A stretch of 64,000 nucleotides of DNA from Pseudonocardia sp. CNS-004 (GTDB lineage Bacteria > Actinomycetota > Actinomycetes > Mycobacteriales > Pseudonocardiaceae): assembly GCA_001942185.1 (NCBI GenBank), contig MKJV01000095.1:1-64000 (forward strand), given 5' to 3'. The stretch's first letter is position 1; every line of letters starts with the position of its first letter. Under the pieces are notes generated by a model that saw only the letters and a program-made list of their open reading frames with translations, ran no database searches and was not told where the DNA came from. Both the position numbers and the translations under genes were made by a program. Shown piece by piece: positions 9,642 through 34,031 of this stretch.

Positions 9642-10805
9642 GTGCGATGGGTCACGGTGGTGGCGCTGGTGCTCGCACTGGCGTGGCCGCCCGCGACAGT
9701 CGCGGCTGCGCCGGTGGCGAGTGTGACGGCGGGGTGCTCGGGTCAGCAGACCCCGCCCGGCCCGACCATCGAGGAGGAGGAAGCCGACCCGGCGCCCGCC
9801 CCGCTCGCCTGGCCCGCCGCACCTGTCGGCGGGCCGAAGATGGGGGCCTGCGGCCGGATCGGCCCGGACGGCGCCCCCGACCTCACCGCCGAGTCGTGGG
9901 TGCTCGCCGACCTCGACACCGGCGCCGTGCTCGCCGCACGCGCCCCACACGCCCGGCACCGCCCCGCGTCCACGCTCAAGGTGCTCACCGCGCTCACCGC
10001 CGTGCGATCGCTCGACCCGGACCAGGTGGTCGCCGGCACCGTCGAGGACCAGTCCATCGACGGCAGCAAGGCCGGCATCGGCCCCGGTGGGCAGTACACC
10101 GTGCGCCAGCTGCTCGCAGGCCTGCTGCTCAACTCCGGCAACGACACCGCCAATGCGCTGTCCCGCGCCATGGGCGGGGAGGACCGCACGCTCGCGGCGA
10201 TGACCGACGTCGCCCACCGGCTCGGCGCCCTCGACACGCGACCCGCCACCCCGTCCGGCCTCGACGGACCGGGCATGGCCTCCTCCGCGTACGACCTCGC
10301 CCTGCTGTTCCGGGCGGCGATGCGCGAACCGCTGTTCGCCGAGACCACCCGCCTGGGCTCGATCCCGTTCCCCGGCTACGCCGAGCACCCCGGGTTCGTG
10401 CTCTACAACAGCAGCAAGCTGCTCGCCCGCTACGAAGGCACGATCGGCGGGAAGACCGGCTTCACCGAGGCCGCCCGGCACACGCTCGTCGGTGCCGCGG
10501 AACGCAACGGGCGCCGGCTGGTGGTGGCGCTGATGCGCGGCGAGCAGACCCCCGTCCCGATGTGGAGGCAGGGCGCCCAGCTGCTCAGCTGGGGGTTCGA
10601 GCTTCCGGCCACGACCCCCGCCGTCGGGCAGCTGGTGGAGGAGGCACCGCCGCCGCCCGCACCGGAGCCGCCCGTCGAGGCGGCCGACACCGCCACCACC
10701 ACCTTCGCCCTCCCGGCGGCACCCCTGATCCTCCCGATCGGGCTCGGGGTCGTCGCCGTGACCGGGATGATCATCGGCGGACTCGCGCTACGCCGCCGCC
10801 ACTGA
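9642..10805 (+). CDS. D-alanyl-D-alanine carboxypeptidase (class C low-molecular-weight PBP)
   Basis: Cell-wall serine carboxypeptidase trimming the terminal D-Ala of peptidoglycan stem peptides. GTG start, N-terminal signal sequence (residues 1-23) and a proline/acidic linker. The catalytic triad motifs are SxxK at 110-113 (STLK), SGN at 165-167 and KTG at 271-273. A proline-rich stretch leads to a C-terminal transmembrane helix near residues 358-382 and a basic RRRH end, as expected of a DacA/PBP5-type membrane-tethered enzyme. Confidence 0.93.
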   Translation: MRWVTVVALVLALAWPPATVAAAPVASVTAGCSGQQTPPGPTIEEEEADPAPAPLAWPAAPVGGPKMGACGRIGPDGAPDLTAESWVLADLDTGAVLAARAPHARHRPASTLKVLTALTAVRSLDPDQVVAGTVEDQSIDGSKAGIGPGGQYTVRQLLAGLLLNSGNDTANALSRAMGGEDRTLAAMTDVAHRLGALDTRPATPSGLDGPGMASSAYDLALLFRAAMREPLFAETTRLGSIPFPGYAEHPGFVLYNSSKLLARYEGTIGGKTGFTEAARHTLVGAAERNGRRLVVALMRGEQTPVPMWRQGAQLLSWGFELPATTPAVGQLVEEAPPPPAPEPPVEAADTATTTFALPAAPLILPIGLGVVAVTGMIIGGLALRRRH

Positions 10806-26564: not shown

Positions 26565-27739
26565 ATGCCCCGCCCGACCAGCGACGTCCACGCATTCGAA
26601 GCCCACGCGCCCGAGGCCGACCTCGACGATCTGCGTGCGCGACTGGCCGCGGCGCGGCTACCGGAGGCAGAGACGGTCCCTCGCGCCGCACCCGATCCCC
26701 GCCGGTGGGAACAGGGCGTTCCGCTCGCCGATCTCGTCGATGTCGTGGACTACTGGCGCACGGGGTACGACTGGCGGTCGTTCGAAGAGCGCGTCAACCG
26801 CATCGGCCAGTTCCGCACGACCATCGATGATCTGGGGATCCACTTCCTGCACCGCCGATCCGCGCGCGCGGATGCCACTCCTCTGATCTTGACGCACGGC
26901 TGGCCGGGCAGCATTGCCGAGTTCGTCCACGTGGTGGACGAGCTGGCGGATCCGAAAGATGCGGACACGCCGGCGTTCCACATCGTCGTCCCGTCGCTAC
27001 CGGGCTTCGGTTACAGCGACAAGCCGGTCACCACCGGGTGGGGAACCGAAAAGATCGCGGCCGCATGGGTGGAGCTGATGGGACGGCTCGGCTACAGCGA
27101 GTTCGCAGCCCACGGCGGCGACTGGGGAGGCAATATCACCACGGTTCTCGGCGGCAGGTTCCCGGCGCACGTCCTCGGCATCCACACGACGTTCGCGGAG
27201 GGGCCGCCCGGGTTGACAACGGCCGGGCTGACGGCGGTCGAGCGCAGGTGGGCCGAGGAGACCCGCGACTCTACGAAGGCCCCCGCGGGGCGTACGCGAA
27301 GCAGCAGGCGAGCCGGCCACAGACCATCGGCTACTCGCTCGTCGACTCACCGGTCGGGCTTCTCGCCTGGATCCTCGACAAGTTCGCCGAGTGGTCGGAC
27401 ACCGAGGACAGCCCGTTCGAGACGATTTCCAGGGACAGGATTCTCGACGACGTCACCCTGTACTGGCTGACGCGGACCGGCGCATCGGCGGCCCGCATCT
27501 ACCACGAGAGCCACAACTCGCTGGACCCCGAGCTCCGGGTCGACGTCCCGGCGGCCATCAGCATGTATCCCCGCGACATCGAGAAGTGTCCGCGCCCCTG
27601 GGCGCAGGCGCGGTACCGCCAGATCGTCCGATGGAGGACGCCCGAAACCGGGGGGCACTTCCCGTCGCTGGAGGTTCCCGAGTTCTTCGTCGAGGACCTG
27701 CAGGAAGGCCTTGCGGCCGTCCTGGCCGCTCATCGGTGA
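26565..27739 (+). CDS. Epoxide hydrolase, alpha/beta-hydrolase type with N-terminal EHN domain (frame break near 27272)
   Basis: About 391 residues after one correction. The EHN domain (residues 8-120) has PDPRRWEQGVPLADLVDVVDYW-like sequence and the oxyanion motif HGWPGS at 111-116. The nucleophile Asp is at 186 in HGGDWGGN, and PGFGYSDKP precedes it. The charge-relay end is read in the second frame after RLYEGPRGAYAKQQ. The ATG has CCAGGAGG 5 bases upstream. Related to juvenile-hormone-type and microbial epoxide hydrolases opening epoxides to diols. Confidence 0.88.
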
Positions 27740-28487: not shown

Positions 28488-28545
28488 CCGCCGGGCCGGG
28501 CTCGGCGAACGTCACGGGGAACGCCGCGTGCGCGAACCCGTCGAG
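28488..28545 (-). repeat. ybaK 3'-end repeat, copy E (degraded)
   Basis: On the minus strand this reads FAHAAFPVTFAE and then loses similarity, matching FAHAVFPTTFAE in the better copies and AHAVFPTTFTE in intact ybaK at 33543-34031. Same orientation as all other copies. It lies between the acidic membrane protein and the EamA transporter, with no ybaK body attached. Confidence 0.5.
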
Positions 28546-28609: not shown

Positions 28610-28696
28610 ATGGGCACCGACGACGTGCAGCGGGTCCTCGACGCTGCCTGCGACCTGTTCGCCCGGCAGGGTCGGCCGGAAGGGAGCACCAGGTGA
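28610..28696 (+). CDS. 28-codon leader ORF, probable TetR N-terminal remnant
   Basis: ATG with an excellent CCAGGAGGCTCCT ribosome site encodes DDVQRVLDAACDLFARQG and stops after 28 codons. The sequence looks like helix 1 of a TetR regulator (compare ILDAACDLFARQG). Its TGA overlaps the GTG/ATG starts of the EamA transporter, so translation of the transporter is probably coupled to it. Either a regulator deleted down to its first helix or a new upstream peptide. Confidence 0.5.
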   Translation: MGTDDVQRVLDAACDLFARQGRPEGSTR

Positions 28697-29696
28697 TGCT
28701 CGGGGTGGTCCTGGCGGTGGTCGCCAGCCTGGCGTATGGGCTCAGCGACGTCCTCAGCGGCTCGGCCGTGCGCCGCCATTCGACGGCGTCGGTGGCACTG
28801 TGGTCACAGCTCACCGGACTGGCACTGCTCGGGCTGGGCGCACTGGTCGTACGTCCGCCGATGAGCTGGCCGGTCCTCGGTTGGGGCCTCGCCGCAGGCG
28901 CGCTCGCCGCCGTCGCGCTGCTGCTGTTCTACACCGCGCTGCAGCGGGGCCGGACCGCGGTCGTCGGCCCGGTCGCCGGCTCCGGGGTGGTGGTCCCGGT
29001 GGTGGCCGGCCTGCTCGGCGGAGAGCCGCTGGCCTGGCCGGCCGCCATCGGGGTGGCGGTGGTCGTCGCCGGCGTGCTCGTCGTCGCCGCGACAGGCGAC
29101 GGCGACGGCCCGGACGTCAGCGGCTCCCCCGGGCCGGTCGACCGGCCCGGCCGCCGACTGATCCGCTCCACGCCCCGCCCGGCCCACCCCGTCCCGGCCG
29201 ACGACCGGTGCCCCGTCCCGGCCGACGACCGGTGCGTGCCGGAGCTCGGCACGAGCTCGACGCGCTCCTCGGTGGTGCTCGCGGCGCTCGCTGCTGCCGG
29301 GTTCGGGGGTTTCTTCGTCCTGCTCGACCTGGCGACGGCCTCGGCCGGAGGGGCCGTCGCGCCGGCTCGACCCTCGCCGCGGCTCTCGCGGTCCAGGCCG
29401 GAGCGGTTGCAGTGACCCTCCTCGCCGCGGTCGGGCACACCCGCGCCTGCCTCGCGCCGCGCCCGCCGCTCCTGCTGGCGGCCGGGGCGGTCGGACTCGT
29501 CGACGTGGTGGGCGACCTGGCGCTGGTCGTCGCGATCGGGATCGGACCGCTCGCCGTCGTCGGTCCGCTGGGCTCGCTCGACCCGGTCGTGACGGTGCTG
29601 ATCGCCGTCGGGGTGCTCGGGGAGCGGCCGCGCGCACTGCAGGTGGTCGGTGTCGCGGCGGTACTGGTCGGCATCGTCCTGGTGGCCACGGGCTGA
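28696..29696 (+). CDS. EamA/DMT-family transporter (frame break near 29362)
   Basis: About 333 residues with ten hydrophobic segments in two EamA repeats. The first repeat starts GVVLAVVASLAYGLSDVLSG, and FYTALQRGRTAVVGPVAGSG is the characteristic segment. A polar linker with a duplicated PVPADDRC follows. The second repeat continues in another frame (GSTLAAALAVQAGAVAV, then IGPLAVVGPLGSLDPVVTVL). One base is missing near 29362. Probable drug/metabolite exporter, substrate unknown. Start overlaps the leader ORF. Confidence 0.82.
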
Positions 29697-29723: not shown

Positions 29724-29777
29724 TGCGCGACGTCCGCAGGCTCCCCGCCGGTGATCTTCACCAGCTCGGCGTAGGTC
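29724..29777 (-). repeat. ybaK 3'-end repeat, copy D
   Basis: The minus strand reads LTYAELVKITGGEPADVAQ, 14 of 17 residues matching TFAELVAVTGGEPADVA of copy C. Same orientation as the other copies. It sits between the EamA stop (29696) and the C-terminal end of the GvpU-like gene, which runs into it without a stop codon in its own frame. Confidence 0.55.
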
Positions 29778-30290
29778 AAGGGCGCGACGCGCCGGTGATG
29801 GCCCACCGACATGCCCGAAGGACCACCCCGAGACCTCTGACAACCGTCCCCGCCAAGGCATTCCGCCGGGGGGAAGAGCACTGGCTCCGGGGGCGAGCAC
29901 CCGTGCATCGCTCAGGTGGATGTAGGTGGTGCGGTCCTCCTGGGCGAGCAGGTGTCGGTAGCGTTCGGAGAGGCCCTCCATCACGTTCTGAGCTGCAAGG
30001 CGCTCCTCGCGGTGCCTCTCCAGCGACTCGCTGACGCCTCGGAACAGCCTCGCCCAACCACCGTGCTCGTCGTCGATGGAGCCGCCGGTGTGCACCGTGA
30101 ACGCGGCACGGGCCGCGTGCTCGACCTCGTCGAACCACTGCCAGTCAGGAATGATCGTGCCACCCACGACCAAGCCACCCAGGGTGAGCACGACGGTGGG
30201 GCCGCCGTCCTGCCGCACCCGCAAAGCGTTGATCTCGCCGACCAGCACTTCCAGCGCTCGGTCGATCTCGGCGCCCCCGTTGCAGGCCAT
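29776..30290 (-). CDS. GvpU-like protein, 3' end unclear
   Basis: ATG at 30290. Conserved-looking blocks are VVLTLGGLVVGGTIIPDWQWFDE and, near the end, TTYIHLSDARVLAPGASALPPGG and WRGRLSEVSGWSFGHV. This resembles GvpU-type gas-vesicle accessory proteins, which also occur outside gvp clusters. No other gvp genes are nearby. After GHV the frame has no stop until deep inside the antisense of the EamA gene. The nearest stop in a shifted frame is at 29776, next to ybaK-tail copy D, so the 3' end may be rearranged or shifted. Confidence 0.5.
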
Positions 30291-30902: not shown

Positions 30903-31416
30903 CTACCACAGCAGCTCACCCTCCAGCCGGTTCGCCGGACTGCTCCCGGATCCCACATCTCGCCCGCGCCGCACCTGAATCCGCTGCCGTCCAGCCGACT
31001 CCTTCGGCAACCGCAACCGCAGCACACCATTCTCCAGCTGCGCGGTGCACGCCTCCGCGTTCACGTCACTGGGCAACGCCACCCGGTAGTCGAACCGCCC
31101 CCGCCGCGACTGCTGCTGCTCGCCCTCACCCTGCTTCGCGCCGTACTGGCCGGTGATCTGAAGCTCGTTGCGCTGCAGATCCACCGTCACGTCCTCCGGC
31201 CCCACCCCCGGCACGTCAGCCTCGACCCGGAACTCCTCCTCGGTCTCCTGCACATCGACCGGCGCGACCAGGACTGCACGCTGATCCTCGCCGCATCCGG
31301 GAGCGCCGTGGTCAACATCCTGCTCATCTGATCGAACAGGTCATCGAACCCGACCAAGCCCCCGAACGGTCCCACCGCCGGACACCAGAACGTCCACGCC
31401 GCGCCGGCATAGTCAT
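30903..31416 (-). CDS. Hsp20/alpha-crystallin small heat-shock protein (frame breaks near 31370 and 31270)
   Basis: ATP-independent chaperone preventing aggregation. The alpha-crystallin domain reads VQETEEEFRVEADVPGVGPEDV, with VALPSDVNAEACTAQLENGVLRLRLPK near its end, ending in RIQV-type sequence. The N-terminal arm FGGLVGFDDLFDQMSRML is in a second frame and the first residues (MTMPARRG) in a third. Two single-base losses restore about 171 residues. No HrcA or HAIR-like operator was recognised upstream. Confidence 0.8.
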
Positions 31417-31659: not shown

Positions 31660-31890
31660 CAAGGTCCTCGTCGTCACGCTGGTATGCCCTCGACGTCACT
31701 TGCGTGCCGACGAACACGACCGTCAGATCGATCCGTCCCGATCTCGGGTCCGCCGGATAGCTCTCGATGGCGGGCGCGCCGCACGCCGCGGCGTTCGACC
31801 GCGCCGTTGGTCAAGGGCGTCGGGTAGCCGTGCCTGCGATGGCCGCCGCGGATGACGACGCAGATGATGTTCCACACCGCCAGGTCGTCA
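31660..31890 (-). pseudogene. GNAT acetyltransferase remnant
   Basis: The minus strand reads DDLAVWNIICVVIRGGHRRHG (acetyl-CoA loop region of the VWxIxCFxVRxGxRRxG type). After a frame change comes GAPAIESYPADPRSGRIDLTVVFVGT, both diagnostic of one GNAT subgroup. The N-terminal half is absent and the C-terminal half degrades. Its truncated 5' edge lies about 30 bases from ybaK-tail copy C. The rest of 31417-31917 shows nothing else I can assign. Confidence 0.6.
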
Positions 31891-31917
31891 AACGGTCGGA
31901 TCGGCCGGGGGTTGTTC

Positions 31918-32017
31918 AACGTCCGCCGGCTCGCCACCCGTGACCGCGACCAGTTCGGCGAACGTACTCGGAAATACAGCGTGCGCGAACCGCTCGATCT
32001 GACATCGTTCTGCAACC
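31918..32017 (-). repeat. ybaK 3'-end repeat, copy C
   Basis: The minus strand reads QIERFAHAVFPSTFAELVAV then TGGEPADV, matching the end of ybaK. Homology to copy B continues upstream of the coding match (GATCTGAC.TCGTT), so the repeat is about 95 bp. The identity to copy B is roughly 80-85 percent by eye. It lies 80 bases before the antitoxin start, with copy B 15 bases after the toxin stop. Confidence 0.65.
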
Positions 32018-32098
32018 TGCTGTCGTACCGGCATCCAGCGCCGACCCGCGGCTGCGGATCGGCCGAGGATGTCGTCGCCCCGGGCTATCGTTCTGGCA

Positions 32099-32433
32099 TG
32101 ACCGCCGCCGAGTCCGCTCCGGCACCCGATCGGCCGCCCTTCGCCGACGCCTCCCCGGCGCAGGTGCGGGCCGCTCTCCTCCCCGAGGACGCGACCGAGT
32201 TCGACCGCCAGTGGCAGGACGTCATGGCCCGCGCGACCCGTGAACTCGACCTCACCGAGGTCCACCGAACGCTGAACACCTGGCGGCGAGTGGCGTGGGT
32301 GACCACGGCAACCGGCCCGGAACGCTACCGCGCCGTGCTCGCCAGCGCCGAAGAACGACGCCACACCGGAGAACGCCACCCCCAGGCCACACCCTGGCAC
32401 CAGCTGAAAGCGGAACTCGGACTACCGGAGTGA
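32099..32433 (+). CDS. DUF6247-like protein, probable antitoxin
   Basis: Protein of 111 residues starting at ATG 32099. It begins MTAAESAPAPDRPPFADASP, then VRAALLPEDATEFDRQWQDVM, LDLTEVHRTLNTWRRVAWVT, and ends HQLKAELGLPE. The pattern matches small actinobacterial proteins that usually precede a RelE/ParE-like toxin. It is helical and acidic with no recognised DNA-binding motif. Its stop overlaps the toxin GTG (GTGA), the usual coupling of type II toxin-antitoxin pairs. Confidence 0.75.
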
Positions 32434-32681
32434 CGTACTCACTCGACGTCGATCCGCTGGCCGAGCAACAGATCGCAGCGCTGCCACAGAACGCGCTGGC
32501 CGTACTGGCCGACGGACTCACCGTCCTCGAACTGGTTCCCTGGAACGGGCTACCGGTCAACCACTCCAATCCGGATGGCCCTGTGCGCCAGCTCCCGTTC
32601 GGCAGCCTCGGGATGATCACCTACCTCATCCTCGACGACCAACAGCGGGTGGACCTGTTGATCGTCACCTGGGCCGGCTGA
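32430..32681 (+). CDS. RelE/ParE-superfamily toxin-like protein
   Basis: Protein of 83 residues with GTG start overlapping the upstream stop. It reads YSLDVDPLAEQQIAALP at the N-terminus and ITYLILDDQQRVDLLIVTWAG at the end. This is the small alpha/beta pattern of RelE/ParE toxins: a helix-rich start, then beta strands with an Arg-containing final strand. Likely an mRNA interferase or gyrase poison neutralised by the preceding protein; activity is inferred from fold and gene order. Confidence 0.75.
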   Translation: MTYSLDVDPLAEQQIAALPQNALAVLADGLTVLELVPWNGLPVNHSNPDGPVRQLPFGSLGMITYLILDDQQRVDLLIVTWAG

Positions 32682-32695
32682 ACGTCCCTTCCACC

Positions 32696-32800
32696 TACGC
32701 CACGTCCGCCGGCTGCCGCCAGTGACCGCCACCAGCTCCGCGAACGTCGTGGGATACACCGCGTGCGCGAACCGCTCGATCTGACGTCGTTTCGTTACCC
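32696..32800 (-). repeat. ybaK 3'-end repeat, copy B
   Basis: The minus strand reads QIERFAHAVYPTTFAELVAV then TGG, and after one missing G, EPADVA and a stop. It is the closest relative of copy C and forms with it a direct repeat flanking the toxin-antitoxin genes. No ybaK body precedes it. The following 32801-33018 stretch contains a short minus-strand reading (MPLPVAQIQFRLVSELSA) that I cannot assign. Confidence 0.65.
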
Positions 32801-33018
32801 GCGAGCGGCGCGGTCCTGACGGTCGGGACTCAGCGGCGAGTTGCCTCGAAGAACATGCGCTCGCGCCCGAGGGCGGACTGCACCGAGCGCCGATAGCTCG
32901 CTGACCAGCCGAAACTGAATCTGAGCGACGGGCAGCGGCATTGCGTGGGTACGTCCTGGATACGGGGTGAGCTTGTTACCGCGGCGCTCACTCCGTCGCC
33001 TCCCGACGGTGACACGGA

Positions 33019-33372
33019 TCAAGGCATGTGGGCGAGCACGTTGACCACGGTGCCGCTGGGATCCTCCACGAAGAAGCGACGCACGCCCCACGGCTCGACG
33101 GTGAGCGGATACACGACGCGCAGTCCGCGACGCACGGCCTCGGCATGCGCGGCATCAACAGCCTCCGGGTCACCGACGTCTATCCCGAAGCGCGGTGGCG
33201 GGTTCTCCATCCCTCGTGGAGGGATGAGGACCTGCGCCGTGGGGTTGGTCGGCGAGGCGAGGCCAAGGACTGGGTCTTCCATCGTGACTTTGAACCCGAG
33301 GACCTCGACGTAGAAGTCCCGGGAGGCGGCGAGGTCGTCCCCATCGGCGTACGCAACGATTCTTTTGATCAC
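33019..33372 (-). CDS. VOC family (glyoxalase-like) protein
   Basis: Protein of 117 residues from GTG 33372. Pattern: [59 protein letters not shown], and EPWGVRRFFVEDPSGTVVNVLAH. These are the two beta-alpha-beta-beta-beta halves of a vicinal oxygen chelate domain with the typical terminal DPSGTVVNVL. Possible role in antibiotic or aldehyde detoxification; metal and substrate unknown. Confidence 0.85.
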   Translation of the reverse strand: MIKRIVAYADGDDLAASRDFYVEVLGFKVTMEDPVLGLASPTNPTAQVLIPPRGMENPPPRFGIDVGDPEAVDAAHAEAVRRGLRVVYPLTVEPWGVRRFFVEDPSGTVVNVLAHMP

Positions 33373-33542: not shown

Positions 33543-34031
33543 CTACGCCACATCAGCCGGCTCGCCGCCTGTGACGGCGACCAGTTCCGTGAACGTGGTT
33601 GGAAATACTGCGTGCGCGATCCCGCCTGCCGCCCACACCTCGTCGTAGGCCTCGAGCGCCCGGTCGACGAGCGTGCGCAGCGGCTGCGGGTGCCCGACCG
33701 GGGCGACGCCGCCGATGGTCTGCCCGGTGGTGGTGCGCACGAACTCCGGCGTCGCTCGCCGCACGCGCCTCGCACCGACGATCTGGGCGACCTTGGCGGT
33801 GTCCACGCGGTGCGCACCCGAGGTCAGCACGAGCAGCGGGTCGCCGTCGGCGTCGAAGACCAGGGAGTTCGCGATCTGGCCCACCTCGACGCCCAGTGCG
33901 TCCGCGGCGGCCGCGGCGGTGGTGACGGCGTCGGGGAGTACTCGCATCCGAGCCACTCGGGACGGGTCGGCGCCGCCGGCGGTGAGTGCGGCGACGACGA
34001 GTTCGACGTTGCGGTGGGTCGCGGTGCTCAC
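33543..34031 (-). CDS. YbaK/EbsC-type aminoacyl-tRNA deacylase (repeat copy A at its 3' end)
   Basis: Trans-editing domain protein of 162 residues, GTG start. Blocks: GVEVGQIANSLVFDADGDPL, a catalytic-type Lys in DTAKVAQIVGARRVRRATPE, TTGQTIGGVAPVGHP, and the tail GIAHAVFPTTFTELVAVTGG then EPADVA. YbaK-family proteins hydrolyse mischarged Cys-tRNA(Pro) or similar. It is the intact source-type gene for the tail repeats B to E. It starts 21 bases after the pseudokinase stop and is probably cotranscribed with it. Confidence 0.9.
   Translation of the reverse strand: MSTATHRNVELVVAALTAGGADPSRVARMRVLPDAVTTAAAAADALGVEVGQIANSLVFDADGDPLLVLTSGAHRVDTAKVAQIVGARRVRRATPEFVRTTTGQTIGGVAPVGHPQPLRTLVDRALEAYDEVWAAGGIAHAVFPTTFTELVAVTGGEPADVA

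What the first reader, a model, noticed from the sequence alone, without database searches (positions are those of the whole stretch)
31918..32800. Toxin-antitoxin pair bracketed by ~95-bp direct repeats
Copies B and C of the ybaK tail are the most similar pair (about 80-85 percent by eye, extending past the coding match through GATCTGAC.TCGTT). They flank only the DUF6247-like antitoxin and the RelE/ParE-like toxin, 80 bases before and 15 bases after. This is the layout of a compact mobile or amplifiable TA cassette with its own attachment-like repeats.
Basis: partly seen in the sequence, partly recalled or inferred. Interest (0 to 1): 0.6.

Follow-up and report, generated by a model that had tools for sequence, protein, structure and literature searches.

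The report
Toxin-antitoxin pair in repeat-bounded insertion array
A small toxin-antitoxin gene pair in a Pseudonocardia-type bacterium sits between copies of the tail end of a neighbouring housekeeping gene, and these copies look like scars of repeated DNA insertions at that one gene, since two relatives show the same kind of scar around different genes.

Summary
The repeats are real: copies B and C (85% over about 85 nt) bracket an intact DUF6247 / RelE-fold pair. They belong to four ybaK-tail copies, all in ybaK orientation; the two farther copies are weaker and the other units hold non-TA genes. Of 52 Pseudonocardia ybaK loci scanned, only this one and G104 have clear downstream copies; G193, with only a ybaK remnant, has two such sites. 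G104 and G193 carry a Phd/ParE-type pair (G193's broken) and, in G193, an ATPase remnant. Five junctions beside different cargo share one element, GTCAGATCGAGCNNYTCNCGCACGC, absent from ybaK itself. In several pairs of close relatives with loaded loci the last 60-85 nt of ybaK look exchanged, near where the tail copies begin. G185 has the same pair right after ybaK, plus the element, but no tail copy. Best reading: serial accretion of att-flanked islets at the ybaK 3' end, each bringing its own ybaK tail; the TA pair is cargo. No recombinase was found at the locus, so site-specific integration is inferred; homologous recombination is the main rival. A self-mobile or amplifiable TA cassette is not supported.

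The parts
33543..34031 (-). ybaK (aminoacyl-tRNA editing family), the insertion target; its last 79 nt (33543-33621) are the reference tail
   Evidence: PF04073 E=9.6e-26; single complete copy in the assembly
33019..33372 (-). glyoxalase-family gene, cargo next to ybaK
   Evidence: PF00903 E=3.8e-14; in G185 it lies directly before the DUF4383-like gene instead
32770..32802 (-). junction element of site C, containing GTCAGATCGAGCGGTTCGCGCACGC with the tail start
   Evidence: alignment and profile, exact pattern search
32696..32772 (-). ybaK tail copy C
   Evidence: profile E=2.1e-14; best match is the ybaK/TA border of L198 (G169), 89.7% over 107 columns
32430..32681 (+). RelE-fold toxin-like gene, 83 codons
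   Evidence: AlphaFold2 pLDDT 96.2; Foldseek best hit M. tuberculosis RelE1 9g12_B, TM 0.83, E=8.1e-5; dN/dS 0.12 against G185
32098..32433 (+). DUF6247 antitoxin-like gene, 111 codons
   Evidence: PF19760 E=2.9e-27; dN/dS 0.17 against G185
31988..32020 (-). junction element of site B
31917..31990 (-). ybaK tail copy B
   Evidence: profile E=1.5e-15
31704..31909 (-). fragment of an acetyltransferase-like gene (named by eye) just after tail B
   Evidence: 79.8% over 208 nt to the P. humida (L202) hotspot at +10163..10370
30903..31253 (-). HSP20-family ORF
   Evidence: PF00011 E=2.6e-19
29799..30290 (-). GvpU-like ORF
   Evidence: NF041667 E=4e-12, 46.5 bits, below the 70-bit cut-off
29727..29782 (-). 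ybaK tail copy A (degraded at its start)
   Evidence: profile E=5.9e-8; best match is the ybaK tail of L198, 88% over 60 nt
28693..29696 (+). EamA transporter gene, frameshifted here, open over 342 codons in L198
   Evidence: PF00892 E=1.4e-10; 90% over 1054 nt to L198, where it follows ybaK after a TA remnant; frames
28500..28542 (-). ybaK tail copy Z (short)
   Evidence: profile E=0.001

Best explanation
The ybaK 3' end is an attachment site. Small integrative islets enter there, each carrying a substitute ybaK tail that restores the gene; the old tail, preceded by the islet's own end (the junction element), is pushed downstream. Repetition gave this order from ybaK outward: ybaK, glyoxalase, element+tail C, TA pair, element+tail B, old genes, tail A, EamA, tail Z. 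Islets of this kind that lack a recombinase are called CIMEs (cis-mobilizable elements) and their stacking accretion. The TA pair is retained cargo and perhaps a stabiliser of the locus. Shown: the tail copies, their common orientation, the shared junction element, the same kind of arrangement around another TA pair in G104. Supported but not proven: exchange of the ybaK tail in loaded loci. Inferred: that a site-specific recombinase acting in trans or since lost did it, and that the pair works as a toxin-antitoxin.
For: Five sites beside different neighbours share 12 invariant bases GTCAGATCGAGC plus CGCACGC at the tail start (window B and C, G104, G193 twice); with at most 1 mismatch the pattern gave 8 places in 6 of 390 family genomes, the 5 exact ones all at the ybaK locus of 3 genomes. 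Tail copies in C, B and G104 begin at the same profile position, 36-37 of 114. Change-point test on 46 close ybaK pairs (200 codon-block shuffles each, no correction for multiple tests): 6 pairs with p<=0.03 lose identity over the last 62-85 nt, and in all 6 both members have more than 1 kb between ybaK and fbiC. Body minus tail identity has median 8.0 points in 17 pairs with long gaps and 1.75 in 11 pairs with gaps of 500 bp or less. Tail C plus TA matches the ybaK-TA border of L198 and G185, as expected if C is a displaced former ybaK end. Fully matching literature for the concept: PMC5704250 passages and PMC9513070 passages and section 14.
Against: No intact element and no attP found: nothing in plasmids or phages or viral contigs. 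G185 has an N-terminal, not a C-terminal, ybaK fragment after the element. Most loaded loci have no second tail. Five further pairs with p<=0.045 break elsewhere in ybaK. The long-gap and short-gap pairs come largely from different sub-clades and share genomes, so they are not independent.
Confidence: 0.5

Rival explanations
1. One ancestral junction (element fused to a ybaK tail) arose once; later copies spread by homologous recombination between ybaK tails of different strains (unequal crossing-over and replacement of the ybaK-fbiC interval), without any site-specific enzyme.
For: No recombinase found; the ybaK-fbiC interval differs in length from 2 bp to over 15 kb among 42 of 52 loci in which fbiC was found, as in ordinary hotspots exchanged through flanking core genes; the G104 repeat is 95% identical to its own ybaK tail; some break points lie elsewhere in ybaK.
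Against: The element stays conserved for about 27 nt while the sequence just before it differs completely between sites; homologous exchange through the tails does not by itself swap cargo exactly up to that point.
Confidence: 0.28
2. A trans-acting gene-cassette system: short cassettes made of a gene plus one recombination site, moved by a recombinase encoded elsewhere, analogous to integron cassettes or Xer-moved dif modules.
For: Units of 0.6-2.2 kb with one site each and no recombinase inside; a variable 6-nt stretch between two conserved blocks in the 25-nt element.
Against: Only 3 of 62 genomes carry the exact element; cargo orientation is not fixed (the TA pair is opposite to ybaK in the window, the Phd pair parallel in G104); no circle or donor array seen; the element has no dyad visible by eye.
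Confidence: 0.12
3. Tandem duplications of ybaK with its flank followed by decay left only the tails.
For: G185 has a 95-nt N-terminal ybaK fragment after the pair and G193 an N-terminal remnant.
Against: Tail starts coincide in C, B and G104 and are preceded by the same non-ybaK sequence; independent decay would not end at one base.
Confidence: 0.06
4. One reading: a self-contained mobile or amplifiable TA cassette with its own attachment repeats.
For: Layout at B and C; a second TA pair bracketed likewise in G104.
Against: Repeats are ybaK tails, also bound non-TA genes, and were not found beside 23 other DUF6247 loci; no recombinase; longest perfect repeat 25 nt.
Confidence: 0.04

Closest known systems
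CIME accretion (cis-mobilizable elements stacked at a gene 3' end; described in PMC5704250)
   Same: Elements without integration or transfer genes, bounded by att-like direct repeats, stacked next to a gene end that serves as target.
   Different: Units here are 0.6-2.2 kb; no related intact element or recombinase was found; the target ybaK was not found as an attB in the library searched.
Decayed actinomycete integrative elements (AICE remnants; PMC9513070, section 14 read)
   Same: Cargo remnants between direct repeats at a protein-coding gene, several elements at one site, partly pseudogenised cargo.
   Different: The Streptomyces remnants keep truncated integrases and an intact relative exists in another strain; here neither was found.
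Integron gene cassettes and Xer dif modules (general knowledge; for dif modules only a search listing was seen, PMC7399989)
   Same: Small gene units with one site each, moved by an enzyme not encoded in the unit; TA genes are known cargo of both (recalled).
   Different: No recombinase identified, and the site is a gene tail plus a 25-nt element rather than attC or dif (judged by eye).
RelBE/ParDE-type toxin-antitoxin modules
   Same: RelE fold of the toxin, overlapping genes, antitoxin first.
   Different: Antitoxin family DUF6247 has no paper in the library; toxin sequence is not matched by Pfam up to E=1; activity untested.

Membership tests
CIME / att-flanked islet | bounded on both sides by attL- and attR-like direct repeats | tested here: met
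   Tails C and B, with the junction element before each
CIME / att-flanked islet | no integration or transfer genes inside | tested here: met
   Only two small genes between the repeats; recombinase searches negative at the locus
CIME / att-flanked islet | derived from, and mobilizable by, an integrative element with the same att specificity | tested here: inconclusive
   No such element found in 62 genus genomes or in plasmid, phage and viral collections with the searches used
CIME / att-flanked islet | insertion restores the target gene 3' end | tested here: inconclusive
   Tail exchange in 6 of 46 pairs at the expected place; 5 other pairs break elsewhere
Type II toxin-antitoxin module (RelE superfamily) | RelE-like toxin fold | tested here: met
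   sequence profile finds archaeal RelE 1wmi only weakly, E=0.046
Type II toxin-antitoxin module (RelE superfamily) | conserved adjacent antitoxin gene | tested here: met
   Toxin homologue beside DUF6247 in 20 of 25 loci examined at E<=0.01
Type II toxin-antitoxin module (RelE superfamily) | toxicity neutralised by the antitoxin | not testable with these tools
   Needs expression tests
Integron cassette | attC site and IntI integrase | not tested
   No attC model was run; the site looked unlike attC by eye

The most novel reading that the evidence does not exclude
Pseudonocardia has an integrase-less gene-cassette system: units of one to a few genes, often toxin-antitoxin pairs, ending in a 25-nt site fused to a ybaK tail, are inserted next to the ybaK gene by a recombinase encoded elsewhere, each insertion replacing the tail of ybaK and moving older units away from it, an integron-like growing array built on a housekeeping gene.
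Probability: 0.15. Interest if true: 0.75.

Novelty: new variant of a known kind. Interest (0 to 1): 0.45.

Why it matters
If right, the 3' end of ybaK, a translation-quality gene, is an integration site in Pseudonocardia that keeps a layered record of past insertions, readable as tail copies. It would give a defined 25-nt site with which to look for the missing recombinase, and a natural case in which TA genes sit as the best preserved cargo of a decaying island. It also warns that repeats around a TA pair can be scars of the host locus and not part of a TA transposon.

Tried and rejected
Integrase next to a tail-like hit in G169 (C9:80144; integrase at C9:80945): the hit lies inside a frame that reads like a DNA ligase (by eye) with profile E=0.33, so rejected as chance.

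A fifth tail in the window at 27355-27405 (E=0.98) and a remnant in P. humida (L202, E=0.77) are at the level of a minus-strand chance hit (E=0.75) in the same scan. The own-tail BLAST of P. humida gave E=8.7e-9 for the remnant, but a minus-strand match in the same locus reached E=1.3e-6; left open.

One-mismatch copies of the element in G014 and G004 are not at their ybaK; the one in G346 was not followed. With 3 mismatches allowed the pattern gave hits at a rate not far from its reversed control (20 places shown; control hits in 6 of 62 genomes).

tblastx of six loci against the window timed out after three (partial output used for L195 and L196). An ORF list of the hotspots by length was mostly wrong-frame and not used. 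The glyoxalase dN/dS was out of frame and is discarded. PADLOC had no match for the pair.

Rows dropped: matches within 130 nt or 12 nt of each locus's own ybaK end; G165 (ybaK found) was not fetched, so 52 of 53 ybaK loci were scanned; fbiC distances use 42 of 52 loci; 18 of 20 toxin homologues were aligned (one split frame, one cut off).

Full report
OBSERVATION. The window lies in a 9.2-Mb draft assembly (G000, 156 contigs, 83% complete) of the genus that holds the Pseudonocardia hits. ybaK (PF04073) is at 33543-34031 on the minus strand. Copies of its last 75-80 nt follow it in the same orientation. B and C are 85% alike over about 85 nt by BLAST (E=1.4e-19 against the whole assembly; next unrelated place E=0.017). 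A profile of 52 ybaK tails finds C (E=2.1e-14), B (1.5e-15), A (5.9e-8) and Z (0.001) downstream of ybaK. The pair between B and C is intact: DUF6247 antitoxin and an 83-codon partner that overlaps it. The partner was modelled from an alignment of 18 homologues with pLDDT 96.2; its best Foldseek match is M. tuberculosis RelE1 (TM 0.83, E=8.1e-5) and E. coli RelE follows. dN/dS against G185 is 0.17 and 0.12, close to ybaK's 0.13.

WHAT THE REPEATS BOUND. From ybaK outward the units hold a glyoxalase gene, the TA pair, a mixed unit (acetyltransferase-like fragment, HSP20 ORF, GvpU-like ORF) and a frameshifted EamA gene. So the repeats are not specific to TA genes. Conversely, DUF6247 genes occur 64 times in 30 of 62 genus genomes; of 25 of these loci scanned, only the window has tail copies, G185's locus shows ybaK itself, and the best other hit has E=0.027.

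OTHER GENOMES. ybaK was found in 53 of 62 genus genomes; 52 loci were scanned with up to 16 kb downstream. At E<=0.01 only the window and G104 have downstream tail copies. In G104 (a Pseudonocardia MAG, contig of 5.7 kb) ybaK is followed by a Phd/YefM antitoxin (PF02604) and a ParE-type toxin (PF05016) and then by a tail copy 95% identical over 81 nt to its own ybaK. G193 has only an N-terminal ybaK remnant, by eye joined to the end of a Phd-type antitoxin, then the toxin (82% to G104's), a first site with a tail, an ATPase remnant (AAA_14; DUF4143 below cut-off) and a second site with almost no tail before fbiC. G185, a near-complete relative, has ybaK, the homologous DUF6247/RelE-fold pair (684 nt at 90%), the junction element with one altered base in its first block, and then about 95 nt of ybaK N-terminus nearly identical to its own (by eye).

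THE JUNCTION ELEMENT. Upstream of the tail, five sites (B, C, G104, two in G193) share GTCAGATCGAGC without exception, then NNYTCN, then CGCACGC where the ybaK match starts. ybaK does not have the first part. Sequence further upstream differs by site. The pattern with up to one mismatch occurs at 8 places in 6 of 390 family genomes; the five exact ones are these sites. It was not found in viral contigs; the 96-nt site had no match in plasmid or phage records.

EXCHANGE OF THE YBAK TAIL. In 46 pairs with ybaK bodies at least 85% identical, a two-segment model was tested with 200 shuffles each. Six pairs with p<=0.03 keep 87-94% identity up to 62-85 nt before the end and 68-79% after it; all six join loci with over 1 kb between ybaK and fbiC. 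Five other pairs with p<=0.045 break elsewhere (101, 241, 256, 271, 459 nt before the end). The window itself gives p=0.03, 0.06 and 0.23 against its three nearest relatives. Median body-minus-tail difference is 8.0 points for 17 pairs with both gaps over 2 kb, 1.75 for 11 pairs with both gaps at most 500 bp; these groups are phylogenetically uneven and share genomes. This supports, without proving, that insertions replace the ybaK tail.

HISTORY OF THE LOCUS. fbiC (named by eye and by similarity) follows ybaK within 500 bp in 20 of the 42 loci where it was found, within 2 kb in 11 more and farther in 11, so the interval is a variable-gene hotspot. In the window the glyoxalase and DUF4383-like genes, neighbours in G185, are separated by 4.5 kb that hold C to Z. 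Tail C with the TA pair resembles the ybaK-TA border of G169 (89.7% over 107 columns) and tail A its ybaK tail (88%), better than the window's own ybaK tail. C and A are therefore best read as ends of former ybaK copies pushed outward.

MECHANISM. Serial insertion at the ybaK 3' end, each islet supplying a new tail, explains the orientation, the shared starts, the shared element and the tail exchange. The missing piece is the enzyme. Tyrosine recombinases are present in each of the 13 genomes searched but not in their ybaK stretches among the hits listed (capped; complete lists for six genomes). Large serine recombinases are in 38 of 62 genomes and never in the fetched ybaK stretches. A panel of 34 recombinases found none in 52 loci plus G193, while finding 35 of 35 recombinase loci as a control. 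So the site-specific step is inferred, and exchange by homologous recombination after one founding junction remains a real rival.

KNOWN SYSTEMS. The review PMC5704250 (passages) defines CIMEs as elements that lost integration and transfer genes but kept attL and attR, and describes their accretion; PMC9513070 (passages and section 14) describes decayed actinomycete elements whose cargo stays between direct repeats at protein-coding genes. The present locus fits that kind. Searches for ybaK as an integration site returned one unrelated paper each: in PMC4129442 (passages) ybaK is cargo of an island; the other was seen in the listing only. No paper in the library names DUF6247.

VERDICT.

Noticed in passing
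L196 (G185), about 28-88 nt after the ybaK stop: A short palindromic insert (TAGGAG...CTCCTA, by eye) at the end of the toxin gene replaces its last three residues; looks like a miniature inverted-repeat element.
   Followed up: no
L161 (G193:C320) 688-1107: An N-terminal ybaK remnant runs into the end of a Phd-type antitoxin, so both ybaK and the antitoxin are broken while the toxin frame stays open.
   Followed up: partly
ybaK-fbiC interval in Pseudonocardia (L195-L244): Length varies from 2 bp to over 15 kb in 42 loci: a gene-content hotspot of the genus.
   Followed up: partly
L065 and L078 (Micromonospora), just after ybaK: Short direct duplications (34 and 37 nt) of the ybaK 3' flank, 60-110 nt downstream.
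   Followed up: no
L202 (P. humida, G167), 2099-2130 nt after ybaK: Possible remnant of a ybaK tail, at chance level in the profile scan (E=0.77).
   Followed up: partly
Genus-wide DUF6247 loci: DUF6247 genes and a RelE-fold partner form a widespread, undescribed TA-like family, up to 7 copies in one genome.
   Followed up: partly
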